Assembly: GCF_036417845.1 (NCBI RefSeq)
Contig: NC_090012.1
Span: 310,001 to 374,000, forward strand
Reading direction: 5' to 3'
DNA length: 64,000 nt
Source of the DNA: Apteryx mantelli
Lineage: Eukaryota > Chordata > Aves > Apterygiformes > Apterygidae
In this document: positions 16,001 through 57,500 of the stretch, one piece after another
Position numbering within the stretch: the first letter of the stretch is position 1
How the letters are laid out: every line of letters starts with the position of its first letter
Program-made: the position numbers and the translations under genes
Notes under the pieces: generated by a model
Database searches by the model: none
Told to the model about the DNA's origin: nothing
What the model saw: the letters and a program-made list of their open reading frames with translations, nothing else

Positions 16001-19000
16001 CTGTGCATGCACGTGGGTGTGCAAGGGAGGGATGTGCACAGGGCTGTGCGAAGGAGGGCTGTGCATGCATGCAGGTGTGCAAGGTAGGAGTGTGCACAGG
16101 GCTGTGCGAGGATGTGCAAGGGAGGGGTGTGCACAGGGCTGTGCGTGCGCGTGGGCGTGCAAGGGAGGAGTGTGCACAGGGCCGTGCAAGGGAGGGCTGT
16201 GCTTGCACATGGGTGTGCAAGGGAGGAGTGTGCACAGGGCCGTGCAAGGGAGGGCTGTGCTTGCACATGGGTGTGCAAGGGAGGGATGTGCACGTGGCCG
16301 TGCATGCACATGGGCGTGCAAGGGAGGACAGCGTGTGCACCAGGATGTGCAAGGGAAATGTGTGCATGCGGGTGTGCAAGGCAGGGGCGTGCATGGCCAG
16401 GCTGGGAAGAGGTGTGCAGAGGGCCGTGCATGCACGTGGGTGTGCAAGGGAGGAGTGTGCACAGGGCCGTGCAAGGGAGGATTGTGCATGCACGCAGGTG
16501 TGCAAGGTAGGAGTGTGCACAGGGCTGTGCGAGGATGTGCAAGGGAGGGCTGTGCTTGCACATGGGTGTGCAAGGGAGGGATGTGCACGTGGCCGTGCAT
16601 GCACGTGGGCGTGCAAGGGAGGACAGCGTGTGCACCAGGATGTGCAAGGGAAATGTGTGCATGCGGGTGTGCAAGGCAGGGGCGTGCATGGCCAGGCTGG
16701 GAAGAGGTGTGCAGAGACCCGTGCAAGAGAGGGCTGTGCATGCACGTGGGTGTGCAAGGGAGGAGTGTGCACAGGGCCGTGCGAGGGAGGGTTGTGTATG
16801 CACATGGGTGTGCAAGGGAGGAGTGTGCACAGGGCTGTGTGAGGGAGGAGTGTGCATAGACCCGTGCAAGAGGGCTGTGCATGCACGTGGGTGTGCAAGG
16901 GAGGAGTGTGCACAGGGCCGTGCAAGGGAGGATTGTGCATGCACATGGGTGTGCAAGGGAGGAGTGTGCACAGGGCCGTGCAAGGGAGGATTGTGCATGC
17001 ACATGGGTGTGCAAGGGAGGAGTGTGCACAGGGCCGTGCAAGGGAAGAGGTGTGCAGAGACCCGTGCAAGAGAGGGCCGTGCATGCACGTGGGTGTGCAA
17101 GGGAGGAGTGTGCACAGGGCCGTGCAAGGGAGGGCCGTGCATGCACATGCGCGTGCAAGGGAGGAGTGTGCACAGATTCGTGTGAGAGAGGGCCGTGCAT
17201 GCACGTGGGTGTGCAAGGCAGGAGTGTGCACCGGGTGTGCAAGGAAGGGAGGCACGCGGGGCGGCGGGTGCGCGCAGCGCCGTGCACACCCATGGGTGCA
17301 CGAGGCCGGGGCGTGCGCGCATGGGGGCGTGCGAGGGAGAGGAGGGCGGGACCCCACCGGTGACCCCGCGGGTGGGGGGACGTCGGTGACCCCGGGGGGG
17401 CCGTGCACGGGGGGAGGGGGGGGGTGTCATCGCTGCGGCGAGCTCGCCCGGCCTCAGCCCTGACGCCGCCGCCGTGTGTGCCCGCAGCTGGCGAGCCTGG
17501 CGGTGGGGGGGGGGGGGGGGTGTCATCACTTCAACGAGCTCACCCGGCCTCAGCCCTGACGCCCCCCCGCGTGCCCGCAGCTGGCGAGCCTGGCGGTGGT
17601 GGGGGGGTGTCATCGCTGCAACGAGCTCGCCCAGCCTCAGCCCTGACGCTGCTGCTGTGTGCCCGCAGCTGGCGAGCCTGGCGGTGGGGTGGGGGGGTGT
17701 CATCGCTGCGACGAGCTCGCCCGGCCTCAGCCCTGACGCCGACGCCGCGATGTGCCCGCAGCTGGCGAGCCTGGCAGTGGGGTGGGGGGGTGTCATCACT
17801 GCAACGAGCTCGCCCAGCCTCAGCCCTGACACCGCCCCCATGTGCCCGCAGCTGGCGAGCCTGGCGGTGGGGGGGGGGGTTGCTTCATCGCTGTGATGAG
17901 CTCGCCCGGCCTCAGCCCTGACGTGCCGCCGCCGTGTGCCCGCAGCTGGCGAGCCTGGCGATGGGGGGGGGGGGGTGTCATCGCTGCAACGAGCTCGCCC
18001 GGCCTCAGCCCTGACGCCGCCCACGTGTGTGCCCGCAGCTGGCGAGCCTGGCGGGCAGCCGCTCGGAGAAGGGCTCCGGCTGGTCGAGCCGCTCGCTGGG
18101 CGCCCGCTGCCGCAACTCGCTGGCCGCCGGCGCCGACGAGCAGCCCCACATCGGCAACTACCGCCTGCTGCGCACCATCGGCAAGGGCAACTTCGCCAAG
18201 GTCAAGCTGGCCCGGCACATCCTCACCGGGCGCGAGGTGAGCGGCTGGGCGCCCCGGGGGGGGAGCGGGGGCAGGTGGGTGCCCCTGGGGGGGATTTGGG
18301 GGAGATGGGTGCTGCTGGGGGGCAGGTGGGTGCCCCTGGGGAGGATTTGGGGGGAGATGGGTGTCCCTGGGGGGGATTGGGGGAAGAGGGGTGTCCCTGG
18401 GGGCAGGTGAGTGCCCCTGGGGGGGATTTGGGGGGAGATGGGTTTCCCTGGGGGGGATTGGGGGGAAATGGGTGTCCCTGGGGGGCAGGTGGGTGCCCCT
18501 GGGGGGGATTTGGGGGAGATGGGCGTCCCTGGGGGCAGGTTGGTGCCCCTGGGGGGGATTTGGGGGAGATGGGTGCTGCTGGGGGGCAGGTGGGTGCCCC
18601 TGGGGGGGATTTGGGGGAGATGGGTGTCCCTGGGGGGCAGGTGGGTGCCCCTGGGGGGGGATTTGGGGGGAGATGGGTGTCACTGGGGGCAGATGGGTGC
18701 CCCTGGGGGGGATTTGGGGGGAGATGGGTGCTGCCAGGGGGCAGGTGGGTGCCTGGGGCGGAGAAGGGGGAGATGGGTGCCCCTGGGGGCTATTGGGGCA
18801 TATAGGTGATGCTGGGGGGCAGATGCGTGCCCCTGGGGTAGGATTTGGGGGAGATGGGCGTCCCTGGGGGCAGGTGGGTGCCCCTGGGGGGGATTTGGGG
18901 GGAGATGGGTGCTGCTGGGGGGCAGGTGGGTGCCCCGGGGGGGGATTTGGGGGAGATGGGTGTCCCTGGGGGGCAGGTGGGTGCCCCTGGGGGGGGATTT

Positions 19001-54565: not shown

Positions 54566-57500
54566 TCAGACCTTCTTCCGCTGTGGCCGCACCCTGGGGA
54601 AGAGCTGGGAGAGGGAAAGAGTGTCAGTGCTGCGAGCTTCCTCTGAGGGTGCCGCCAGTGTCCCCCGACGGGGCCCTGGGGGTCACGAGCTCCCCCTGGG
54701 GCTGCGAGCTTCCTCCGAGGGTGCCACCAGCTCCCCCCGATGGGGTCGTGGGGCGCTGTGGGGGCTGCAGGTCCCCCCCCAGCAGGGTTATGGGGGGGGG
54801 GAGAGCTATGGGGGCTGTTGGTGCTGCACATTTCCCCCGCGGCGGGACCCTGGGGTGGCCGGGGGTGCCGTGGACCCCCCCCCCACGCCCCCCCCACCCC
54901 GGGACGGGTGCTCACCCCGAAGTAGTTCTTGGGCACGTAGCCCTCGTGGCCGTAGAGGGAGCCCCACCACCAGTCGAGCTGCTCGGGGGGGGCGCGCCGC
55001 AGCACGGTGACGGGCTCGCCCTCGCGGAACGACAGCTCGTCGCCCAGCTCGGCGCTGTAGTCCCACAGCGCGTACACCACGCCGCTGTTCAGCGTCCCCA
55101 TGCTCTGCTCCACCTCTGCGGGCACGGCGATCGGGGGGGGGGGGTCGGGGGAGGGGGGCACTGAGCCCCTGTCTCCCCCCCCCAGCACCCTATAGCACCC
55201 TGAGCCCCCCCAGCACCCCTAATACCCCATATAGCCCAAGCACCCCTATGGCCCTAACCCCCCCCCCAGTACCCAGACCCCCTGCATCCCCCCCCAGCAC
55301 CCTATAGCACCCCCATGGCCCTGAACCCCCCCAGCACCCCAACCCCATATATCCCTCCCAGCACCCTATAGCACCCCCATGGCCATGAGCCCCCCCAGCA
55401 CCCCTAATACCCCATATAGCCCAAGCACCCCTATAGCCCTAAGCCCCCCATCACCCTGACCCCCTCTTCCCCCCCAGCACCCTATAGCACCCCGATGGCC
55501 CTGGACCCTCCCAGCACCCCAGCCCCATGTATTCCCCCCCCCCCAGCACCCTATAGCACCCTGGTGGCCCTGAACAGTCGCCATAGCCCTCCCAGTACCC
55601 CTTCCCAGTAGCCCCATAGCCCCCGGCACCCCCAGCACCGCATAGGTAGTTGTAACAGTCGGTGTAGCCCTCGTGGTACCCCCGTCCCCCCCTGTACCGC
55701 AGAGGTAGTTGTAACAGTCGGCGTAGCCCTTGTGGTACTCCCGTCCCCCCCGATACCCCCGCTCCCACAGTACCACATAGGTAGTTGTAACAGTCGGCCA
55801 GCATAGCCCTCGTGGTACCCCCGTCCCCCCTCCCCGGTACCCCCGCTCCCGTGGTACCGCATAGGTAGTTGTAACAGTCGGCTGGCGTAGCCTTCACGGT
55901 ACCCCCTGTTCCCCCTGTCCCCCCGGTACCCCCGTCTCCCCCGGTACTGCAGAGGTAGTTGTAACAGTCAGCATAGCCCTCGCGGTACCTCCATCCCCCT
56001 GATACCCCTGTCCCCCCCGGTCCCCCCGTGCCCCCTGGTACCGCAGAGGCAGTTGTAACAGTCGGCGTAGCCCTCGCGGTACCCCCTGTTCTCCCAGGTA
56101 CCCCCGTCCCCCCTGGTACCCCTGCTCCCGCGGTACCGCAGAGGTAGTTGTAACAGTCGGCGTAGCCCTCGCGGTACGGGTCGCACTTCTCCACGGCCAG
56201 GCTGCCGTCGCTGGCGGTGGTGGCGAAGATGGCGGCGCCGTGGCGCACCAGGGCCACGCAGACGGCCGTGTCGTTGCACGAGGCGGCGCAGTGCAGCGGC
56301 GTCCTGCGCGGCGGCAGCGGCGGCGGCGGGTTAACGTCCCCCGCGCGGCCCGCCGTCACCCCGGCGGGGTCGGGGTCCCCATCCCCGTCCCCGTGCCTCA
56401 CCAGCCGTGGCTGTCGGGCGAGTTGACGTCGGCGCCGCTGGCGATGAGGAAGTCCACGATGGCGTAGTTGGCGCCGCAGATGGCGTTGTGCAGCGCCGTG
56501 ATGCCCTCGTCGTTGGGCTGGCTCGGGTCGTTGAGCTGCCGCGGGGGCGGCGCGGCTCAGCGGGGCCGCCCGGCCCCCCCCGCCCCCCCCCGAAGCGCCC
56601 CCGCCACCCCCAGCTGCCACCGCGTCACCCCGAGCCCTGCCATCCCCGAAGTGCCACCCCCGTCCGTGTCACCCCAAGCCCTGCCACTCCAAAGTGCCAC
56701 CATCTGTGTCACCCTGAGCCCTGCCATCCCCAAAGTGCCACCCCCATCTGTGTCACTCCGAGCCCTGCCACCCCAAAGTGCCACCCCATCCATGTCACAC
56801 TCTGCCCTGCCACCCCGTCCATGTCATCCTGAGCCCTGCAATCCCCAAAGTGCCACCCCAACCGTGTCATCCTGAGCCCTGCCACCCCAAAGTGCCACCC
56901 CATCTGTGTCACCCCGAGCCCTGCCACCCCCGAAGCGCCACGCCGTCCGTGTCATCCTGTGCCCTGCCACCCCCAAAGTGCCACCCCCATCTGTGTCACC
57001 CCAAGCCCTGCCATCCCTGAAGTGCCACCACATCTGTGTCACCCTGAGCCCTGCCATCCCCAAAGTGCCACCCCATCTGTGTCACCCTGAGCCCTGCCAT
57101 CCGCAAAGTGCCACCCCGTCTGTGTCACCCTGAGCCCTGCCACACCCAAAGTGCCACCCCCATCTGTGTCACCCCAAGCCCTGCCATCCCCAAAGTGCCA
57201 CCCCATCTGTGTCATCCTGAGCCCTGCCACCCCAAAGTGCCACCCCGCCCGTGTCACCCCGAGCCCTGCCACCCCAAAGTGCCACCCCGTCCGTGTCACC
57301 CCGAGCCCTGCCACCCCAAAGTGCCACCCCCATCCGTGTCACCCCGAGCCCTGCCACCCCCAAAGTGCCACCCCCATCTGTGTCACCCCGAGCCCTGCCA
57401 TCCCTGAAGTGCCACCACATCTGTGTCACCCCGAGCCCTGCCACCCCCAAAGTGCCACCCCATCCGTGTCATCCTGAGCCCTGCCATCCCTGAAGTGCCA

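What the first reader, a model, noticed from the sequence alone, without database searches (positions are those of the whole stretch)
17421..56190. Splice-junction-spanning minisatellites as a recurring mode of evolution in one locus
Four independent arrays in three genes (two at acceptors, two at donors) use an exon-intron border as the repeat unit. In every case the genuine exon sits at the edge of the array with its neighbour copies as decoys. Most other introns here are also minisatellites, so the process may reflect a general tendency of GC-rich microchromosomes to slip or convert at GC-rich exon edges. The result is tandem alternative splice sites whose number can change by unequal exchange.
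Basis: inference. Interest (0 to 1): 0.92.

Follow-up and report, generated by a model that had tools for sequence, protein, structure and literature searches.

The report
Exon-edge repeats on avian dot chromosome
In a tiny, very GC-rich bird-type chromosome, four introns carry tandem repeats that copied the edge of the neighbouring exon together with its splice site; this is a real but already published phenomenon (exon stuttering), and here it is not significantly commoner than random placement of repeats would give.

Summary
The window carries EXOC3L2, MARK4, CKM, KLC3, ERCC2 and PPP1R13L on a 1.73-Mb contig (about 70% GC). Of 142 exon-intron junctions, four self-align to the adjacent intron above every one of 1,420 control draws: MARK4 intron 1 acceptor, MARK4 intron 8 donor, KLC3 intron 5 acceptor, PPP1R13L intron 5 donor. 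A fifth lies outside the window, at a VASP donor, with three fresh (97-98%) and three old (70-75%) exon copies.

Intronic arrays do not demonstrably favour exon edges: 4 of 58 enter an exon, against 2.2-18.4 expected under random placement in twelve settings. The rate, 4 of 71 introns, is consistent with 190 of 5,572 published for chicken dot chromosomes.

Best explanation: ordinary local minisatellite turnover that sometimes takes in an exon edge, which selection keeps as a permanent template. The copied splice sites are mostly passive decoys (inferred; use is untested). New member of a known kind.

The parts
17408..18054 (+). MARK4 intron 1 / exon 2 acceptor array: 7 acceptor modules (CTGAC-containing branch-like region, ...CCCGCAG, first 15 nt of exon 2), 88-94 nt apart; the last is the real exon
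   Evidence: TRF and junction alignment, copy listing, alignment A1
18039..18236 (+). MARK4 exon 2 (genuine acceptor at 18039)
   Evidence: open spliced frame, AG/GT; the exon 2 start lies outside the solved-structure match, so this boundary rests on splice signals and a recalled resemblance to human MARK4
20851..21087 (+). MARK4 exon 8 (kinase domain); its last 63 nt are the repeat source
   Evidence: collinear with solved MARK4 kinase 5es1
21026..21367 (+). MARK4 intron 8 donor array: 72-nt unit = 9 nt intron + 63 nt exon; decoy donors at 21160, 21232, 21304, all in frame and open
42527..42924 (+). KLC3 intron 5 / exon 6 acceptor array: about 41-nt monomers in 82-nt dimers; strong decoy exon starts at 42574, 42656, 42738, 42821
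42905..43078 (+). KLC3 exon 6 (genuine acceptor at 42905)
   Evidence: collinear with kinesin light chain 1
55620..56177 (-). PPP1R13L exon 5 / intron 5 donor array: copies of the last about 40 nt of exon 5 plus its donor, 59-95 nt apart; decoy donors (first intron base) at 56041, 55947, 55857, 55773, 55697, 55638
56137..56303 (-). PPP1R13L exon 5 (genuine donor, first intron base 56136, weak: 3rd percentile of the 71 donors here)
   Evidence: collinear with RelA-associated inhibitor 6dcx; score

Best explanation
These are four cases of exon stuttering: local expansion of imperfect tandem repeats in introns of a small, GC-rich avian-type dot chromosome, in which the amplified block happens to include the edge of the adjacent exon with its splice site. 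Shown here: the four junction-spanning arrays; the exon as the conserved copy; no significant excess over random placement; the same thing in the neighbouring gene VASP, where near-exact copies lie between the exon and older diverged copies. Inferred: arrays arise by slippage or unequal conversion anywhere in the intron; because selection holds the exon edge constant, it stays as a template that can seed new bursts; exon definition and nonsense-mediated decay keep most decoy splice sites silent.
For: Junction test: 4 of 142 above all 1,420 nulls. Tandem repeats fill 64% of intronic and 4% of exonic bases; arrays enter exons no more, beyond noise, than random placement predicts. Exon copies are the conserved ones (protein collinearity; MARK4 exon 2 start not covered). 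VASP: copies 1-3 are 97-98% and copies 4-6 are 70-75% identical to the exon part. Contig 1.73 Mb; 63-73% GC and 26-64% tandem repeat in 10-kb bins from 210 to 390 kb. Three 3-kb samples from other contigs under 3 Mb have 65-70% GC and 16-69% tandem repeat, while six of seven samples from contigs over 7 Mb have 0-2%. The published description matches in most features (PMC12954441: abstract, sections 7 and 9, part of 8).
Against: MARK4 intron 1 copies only 15-16 nt of exon, below the 20-nt floor of the published screen. The placement null ignores selection, so a mutational bias towards exon edges masked by selection cannot be excluded. The acceptor-side control is odd: 0 of 54 other arrays end within 20 nt of an acceptor (7.2 expected), yet two arrays cross acceptors completely. 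Two samples from larger contigs are GC-rich (64 and 71%) but nearly free of tandem repeat, so GC alone does not explain it. Length variation between individuals, a defining trait, was not testable.
Confidence: 0.86

Rival explanations
1. A junction-directed mutational process (for example R-loop, G-quadruplex or GC-skew driven slippage at exon edges) preferentially uses exon borders as repeat units.
For: Two arrays carry complete acceptors although other arrays avoid the last 20 nt of introns (0 of 54); array ends lie within 10 nt of donors more often than expected (9 against 3.8); VASP shows what looks like a second burst at the same edge; in 2 of 12 placement settings 4 is above expectation, not significantly.
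Against: 4 of 58 arrays enter exons against 2.2-18.4 expected by random sliding, no significant excess in any of 12 settings and a deficit in 5. Purifying selection could hide a bias, so this is not final.
Confidence: 0.1
2. The copies are functional: tandem splice sites kept by selection and used, making length-variable MARK4, KLC3 or PPP1R13L isoforms.
For: MARK4 intron 1: columns in branch-like region, acceptor and exon vary less than upstream intron columns (1 of 34 against 10 of 30, Fisher P 0.002; outside CpG 0 of 27 against 4 of 20, P 0.027; at CpG 1 of 7 against 6 of 10; linker and G-run columns were left out). PPP1R13L copies carry 6 synonymous and 4 non-synonymous distinct changes (P 0.013-0.034). 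All 3 MARK4 intron 8 decoys are in frame and open; KLC3 decoy 42821 would add 28 open codons; 4 of 6 PPP1R13L decoys are in frame and open.
Against: Tests were chosen after seeing the alignments, are few and uncorrected; recent origin or conversion from the exon explains conservation too. The three full MARK4 intron 8 copies differ from the exon by 8 non-synonymous and 5 synonymous changes each. All 6 MARK4 intron 1 decoys, 3 of 4 strong KLC3 decoys and the VASP decoys read into stops. The PPP1R13L decoy donors score below every real donor here. Equally strong decoys occur in array introns without exon copies: 14 of 71 introns hold a donor, and 8 of 71 an acceptor, at least as strong as their own.
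Confidence: 0.07
3. Assembly or polishing artefact in hard-to-sequence GC-rich arrays.
For: The VASP proximal units are nearly identical; a 200-N gap lies 4.5 kb beyond the window.
Against: In-window copies differ by substitutions and indels; the same kind of structure is reported in chicken, where PHF8 was checked with raw nanopore reads (PMC12954441).
Confidence: 0.04

Closest known systems
Exon stuttering / sequence stuttering of avian dot chromosomes (Hron et al. 2026, Genome Biol Evol, PMC12954441)
   Same: Imperfect tandem blocks of tens to hundreds of bases in introns; in some introns the block includes the lateral part of an exon with its donor or acceptor; strong concentration on dot chromosomes; potential alternative splicing noted by the authors.
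   Different: Reported for chicken (115 genes, 236 introns). This genome is 1.50 Gb, larger than the chicken assembly (1.1 Gb in PMC9974502, passages seen), so probably another species. The three genes are not named in the main text; the gene list is in a supplement I could not open. Added here: placement control, two age classes in VASP, frame and strength of each decoy.
Intron gain by tandem genomic duplication (e.g. PMC4974935, seen in a search listing only)
   Same: Tandem duplication that brings splice sites with it (mechanism partly recalled).
   Different: There a duplication makes a new intron; here an existing intron is filled with many copies and no new intron is evident.
Tandem alternative splice sites and intronic VNTRs (recalled, no call)
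   Same: Several competing donors or acceptors in series.
   Different: Use in transcripts is what defines them, and was not testable here.

Membership tests
Exon stuttering | Local tandem expansion inside introns, units of tens to hundreds of bases | tested here: met
   58 arrays in 42 of 71 introns at 40 nt overlap or more; units of about 41-95 nt in the four arrays
Exon stuttering | Repeated block includes the edge of the adjacent exon and its splice site | tested here: met
   4 of 142 junctions above all 1,420 nulls
Exon stuttering | Coding exon itself left intact | tested here: met
   Spliced proteins collinear with solved structures; MARK4 exon 2 start not covered by a structure
Exon stuttering | Location on a dot chromosome | tested here: met
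   Contig 1.73 Mb, about 70% GC around the window, tandem-repeat rich; that the animal is a bird is inferred, not tested
Exon stuttering | Exon copy of at least 20 nt with BLASTn bit score of at least 42.1 in the published screen | tested here: inconclusive
   Published pipeline not run; exon parts overlapping the arrays are 16, 62, 20 and 41 nt
Exon stuttering | Intron length varies between individuals | not testable with these tools
   One assembly only, no reads
Intron gain by tandem duplication | A new intron bounded by the duplicated splice sites | tested here: not met
   Spliced proteins collinear with known ones across these exons; no transcript data
Tandem alternative splice sites | More than one site used in transcripts | not testable with these tools
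   No RNA data

The most novel reading that the evidence does not exclude
Exon stuttering works as a self-renewing generator of competing splice sites: the exon edge is a permanent template that re-seeds bursts of near-exact copies, and copy number, which in chicken differs between individuals, tunes isoforms. In MARK4 this would be an in-frame 24-residue ladder in the kinase domain. Some decoy modules would then be kept by selection.
Probability: 0.07. Interest if true: 0.8.

Novelty: new member of a known kind. Interest (0 to 1): 0.38.

Why it matters
It supports extending a newly described avian instability to what is probably a second species, and adds a control that the published work, as far as I read it, lacks: arrays meet exon edges no more than chance predicts beyond noise, so no junction-specific mechanism is needed. 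The two-generation VASP array suggests that the conserved exon edge acts as a lasting template, which pedigree or population long reads could test directly. If decoys are used at all, copy number would become an isoform dial on genes such as MARK4.

Tried and rejected
Ohnolog control in the same genome (MARK1-3, other kinesin light chains, CKB, TP53BP2 from other chromosomes) was planned, but every protein search of the genome did not complete. Vertebrate homologues could not be fetched. No Rfam family matched at gathering score. A self-written exon-chaining gene finder trained on the window found 60 of 77 true exons exactly among 118 predicted. It was too imprecise for a rate over the contig; one of its filters was mis-indexed and gave nothing, and was not used. 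Its raw list held further high-scoring junctions in unverified exons, which were not counted. Only homology-supported genes were used from the flanks: SUPT5H, TIMM50, RTN2, FOSB and three VASP exons, 47 introns. VASP was annotated by hand after its hit was seen, so 5 of 118 introns is biased upward. An RTN2 acceptor at score 26 was set aside as low-complexity and ab initio. A 15-nt microexon reading of the MARK4 intron 1 copies was dropped: the following donors score at or below the 18th percentile. An age gradient away from the exon was looked for in the four arrays; identities are 0.88-0.95, 0.81-0.84, 0.85-0.98 and 0.71-0.81 without a consistent trend, though the farthest KLC3 unit is lowest. 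Only VASP shows two clear classes. VASP copies were located by an exact 12-nt donor motif, so copies lacking it would be missed.
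Full report
WHAT IS IN THE WINDOW. The window is positions 310001-374000 of a 1.73-Mb contig (C35) of a 1.50-Gb assembly; the largest contig I sampled is 223 Mb. I read all of it and annotated 77 exons and 71 introns: EXOC3L2 (-), MARK4 (+), CKM (-), KLC3 (+), ERCC2 (-), PPP1R13L (-, 5' part beyond the window). Identity rests on solved structures for CKM, MARK4 kinase, RelA-associated inhibitor, kinesin light chain (best match KLC1; the number 3 is from recalled gene order) and XPD, and on Pfam Sec6 for EXOC3L2 (the exact name is recalled). 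ERCC2 matches XPD over all 760 residues. That the animal is a bird is inferred from GC content, repeat style and chromosome sizes. The genome is larger than the chicken assembly (1.1 Gb in PMC9974502, passages seen), so it is probably another species.

THE OBSERVATION. For each of 142 junctions I aligned 30 nt of exon plus 30 nt of intron to the rest of the same intron. Four span the junction with scores 45, 45, 42 and 28; none of 1,420 alignments to equally long pieces of other introns reached 26. TRF finds arrays (30 nt or more) in 43 of 71 introns, covering 64% of intronic and 4% of exonic bases.

ANATOMY. MARK4 intron 1 has seven modules 88-94 nt apart. Each holds an invariant CAGCCCTGAC stretch (branch-site-like by recall), CCCGCAG and CTGGCGAGCCTGGC; the last module is exon 2. 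MARK4 intron 8 has 72-nt units made of 9 nt of intron and the last 63 nt of exon 8, with donors exactly 72 nt apart and the frame open through all units. KLC3 intron 5 has monomers of about 41 nt in 82-nt dimers, each with at least one intact acceptor. PPP1R13L intron 5 has six copies of the last 40 or so nt of exon 5 with its donor, 59-95 nt apart. The exon copy is taken as ancestral: it encodes the conserved residues, while the copies differ.

PREDICTED SPLICING EFFECT. I scored sites with weight matrices built from the window's own 71 introns. Decoys were scored with the full matrix, so the true site's fair comparison is its full-matrix score; leave-one-out values are given too. Five of six MARK4 intron 1 decoys lie at or above the 38th percentile of real acceptors (true site 65th, or 52nd left out). 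One of three MARK4 intron 8 decoys equals the true donor (72nd); two are at the 24th. Of four strong KLC3 decoys (51st, 97th, 75th, 97th), three exceed the true acceptor on the same matrix (65th) and all four exceed its left-out score (30th). Five PPP1R13L decoy donors scored are below every real donor (the sixth, found, has the same nine bases as one of them); the true one is itself at the 3rd percentile. Such decoys are not special to these arrays: 14 of 71 introns hold a donor, and 8 of 71 an acceptor, at least as strong as their own, among them MARK4 intron 12 and ERCC2 intron 5, which have no exon copies. Use of decoys would add 24, 48 or 72 open codons to MARK4 exon 8 and 28 to KLC3 (site 42821). 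Four of six PPP1R13L decoys are in frame and open. All six MARK4 exon 2 decoys, the other three strong KLC3 decoys and the VASP decoys lead into stops. Nothing here shows that any is used.

IS IT A SPECIAL PROCESS? In twelve settings 2.2 to 18.4 arrays would overlap an exon edge; 4 do. Two settings (2.2 and 2.4 expected) put 4 above expectation, not significantly (lowest P of at least 4 is 0.17); five settings give a deficit at P below 0.05. So there is no evidence that exon edges are favoured; purifying selection would produce a deficit and could also mask a mutational bias. Among the 54 arrays outside exons, none ends within 20 nt of an acceptor (7.2 expected; within 30 nt, 8 against 10.6), and 9 have an end within 10 nt of a donor (3.8 expected).

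NEIGHBOURS. I fetched 100 kb on each side. On the left GC is 63-73% and tandem repeat 32-64% per 10-kb bin. On the right both fall off beyond about 390 kb. Of 47 introns in SUPT5H, TIMM50, RTN2, FOSB (names recalled; Pfam families agree) and part of VASP, one is a clear case, the VASP donor (score 60 of 60); one RTN2 acceptor is at the threshold and was set aside. VASP (identity) was annotated after the hit was seen. Its intron has three units 97-98% identical to the exon part next to the exon, and three older ones at 70-75% sharing a 21-nt deletion. I read this as a new burst from the exon edge beside an older array; an assembly duplication of the near-identical units is not excluded. Of ten 3-kb samples, those from contigs under 3 Mb (3 of 3) are GC-rich and hold 16-69% tandem repeat; of the seven from larger contigs six have 0-2%, two of these being GC-rich (64 and 71%), and one lies in a satellite.

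SIGNS OF CONSTRAINT ON COPIES. In MARK4 intron 1, branch-like region, acceptor and exon columns vary less than upstream intron columns (1 of 34 against 10 of 30, P 0.002; outside CpG 0 of 27 against 4 of 20, P 0.027; at CpG 1 of 7 against 6 of 10); the G-run and the linker were left out of this count. PPP1R13L copies show 6 synonymous to 4 non-synonymous distinct changes over six copies (P 0.013-0.034 over CpG settings). The three full MARK4 intron 8 copies show 8 non-synonymous to 5 synonymous each, which I read as no sign of constraint. These tests were chosen after looking, and recency or conversion from the exon explains them as well.

WHAT IS KNOWN. Hron et al. 2026 (PMC12954441; abstract, sections 7 and 9 whole, second part of section 8 and passages elsewhere) describe sequence stuttering in chicken. 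[quoted passage not shown] They list 115 genes and 236 introns, 190 on dot chromosomes (3.4% of 5,572 dot-chromosome introns), with sources within 1 base of the exon border in more than 90% of cases and a median length difference of 559 bp between alleles of exon-stuttering introns. Our 4 of 71 is consistent with that rate (two-sided binomial P 0.31), though the screens differ. Searches for 'exon stuttering' and for 'sequence stuttering' with 'intron' returned only this paper. The main text does not name MARK4, KLC3, PPP1R13L, ERCC2 or CKM; the supplement was not open to me.

VERDICT. Real, correctly described, not unusual for such a chromosome, and published as a phenomenon in February 2026. 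Added here are the instances, the placement control, the decoy-by-decoy reading and the two-age VASP array.

Noticed in passing
L016:5391-6477 (contig C35:275391-276477, minus strand): VASP exon 3 donor: three near-exact 167-168-nt copies of exon edge plus intron, followed by three older copies with a shared 21-nt deletion.
   Followed up: partly
24893-24972: MARK4 exon 16 (80 nt): skipping it gives the long C-terminus, including it shifts frame, resembling the recalled human MARK4 L/S alternative exon.
   Followed up: partly
C35:378476-378675: A 200-N gap 4.5 kb right of the window; beyond about 390 kb GC falls to 51-67% and tandem repeats nearly vanish. Euchromatin border or misjoin.
   Followed up: no
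56129-56177 (-): Exon 5 of PPP1R13L contains GTACCGCG exactly 41 nt before the same 8 bases at its unusual, weak donor, a direct repeat that could have seeded slippage or supplied the donor itself.
   Followed up: partly
window introns, all six genes: None of 54 arrays ends within 20 nt of an acceptor (7.2 expected), while 9 have an end within 10 nt of a donor (3.8 expected).
   Followed up: partly
introns of all six genes, e.g. MARK4 intron 12 and ERCC2 intron 5: Arrays without exon copies also multiply strong decoy sites: 14 donors at least as strong as its own in MARK4 intron 12, 12 acceptors in ERCC2 intron 5.
   Followed up: no
L025 (C8:5000001-5003000): A 3-kb sample on a 44-Mb contig is 99% tandem repeat with a 36-nt period, a satellite.
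   Followed up: no
5222-5329 and intron 6 of EXOC3L2: Borderline fifth case: donor region resembles the intron array (score 24), within the null range.
   Followed up: no
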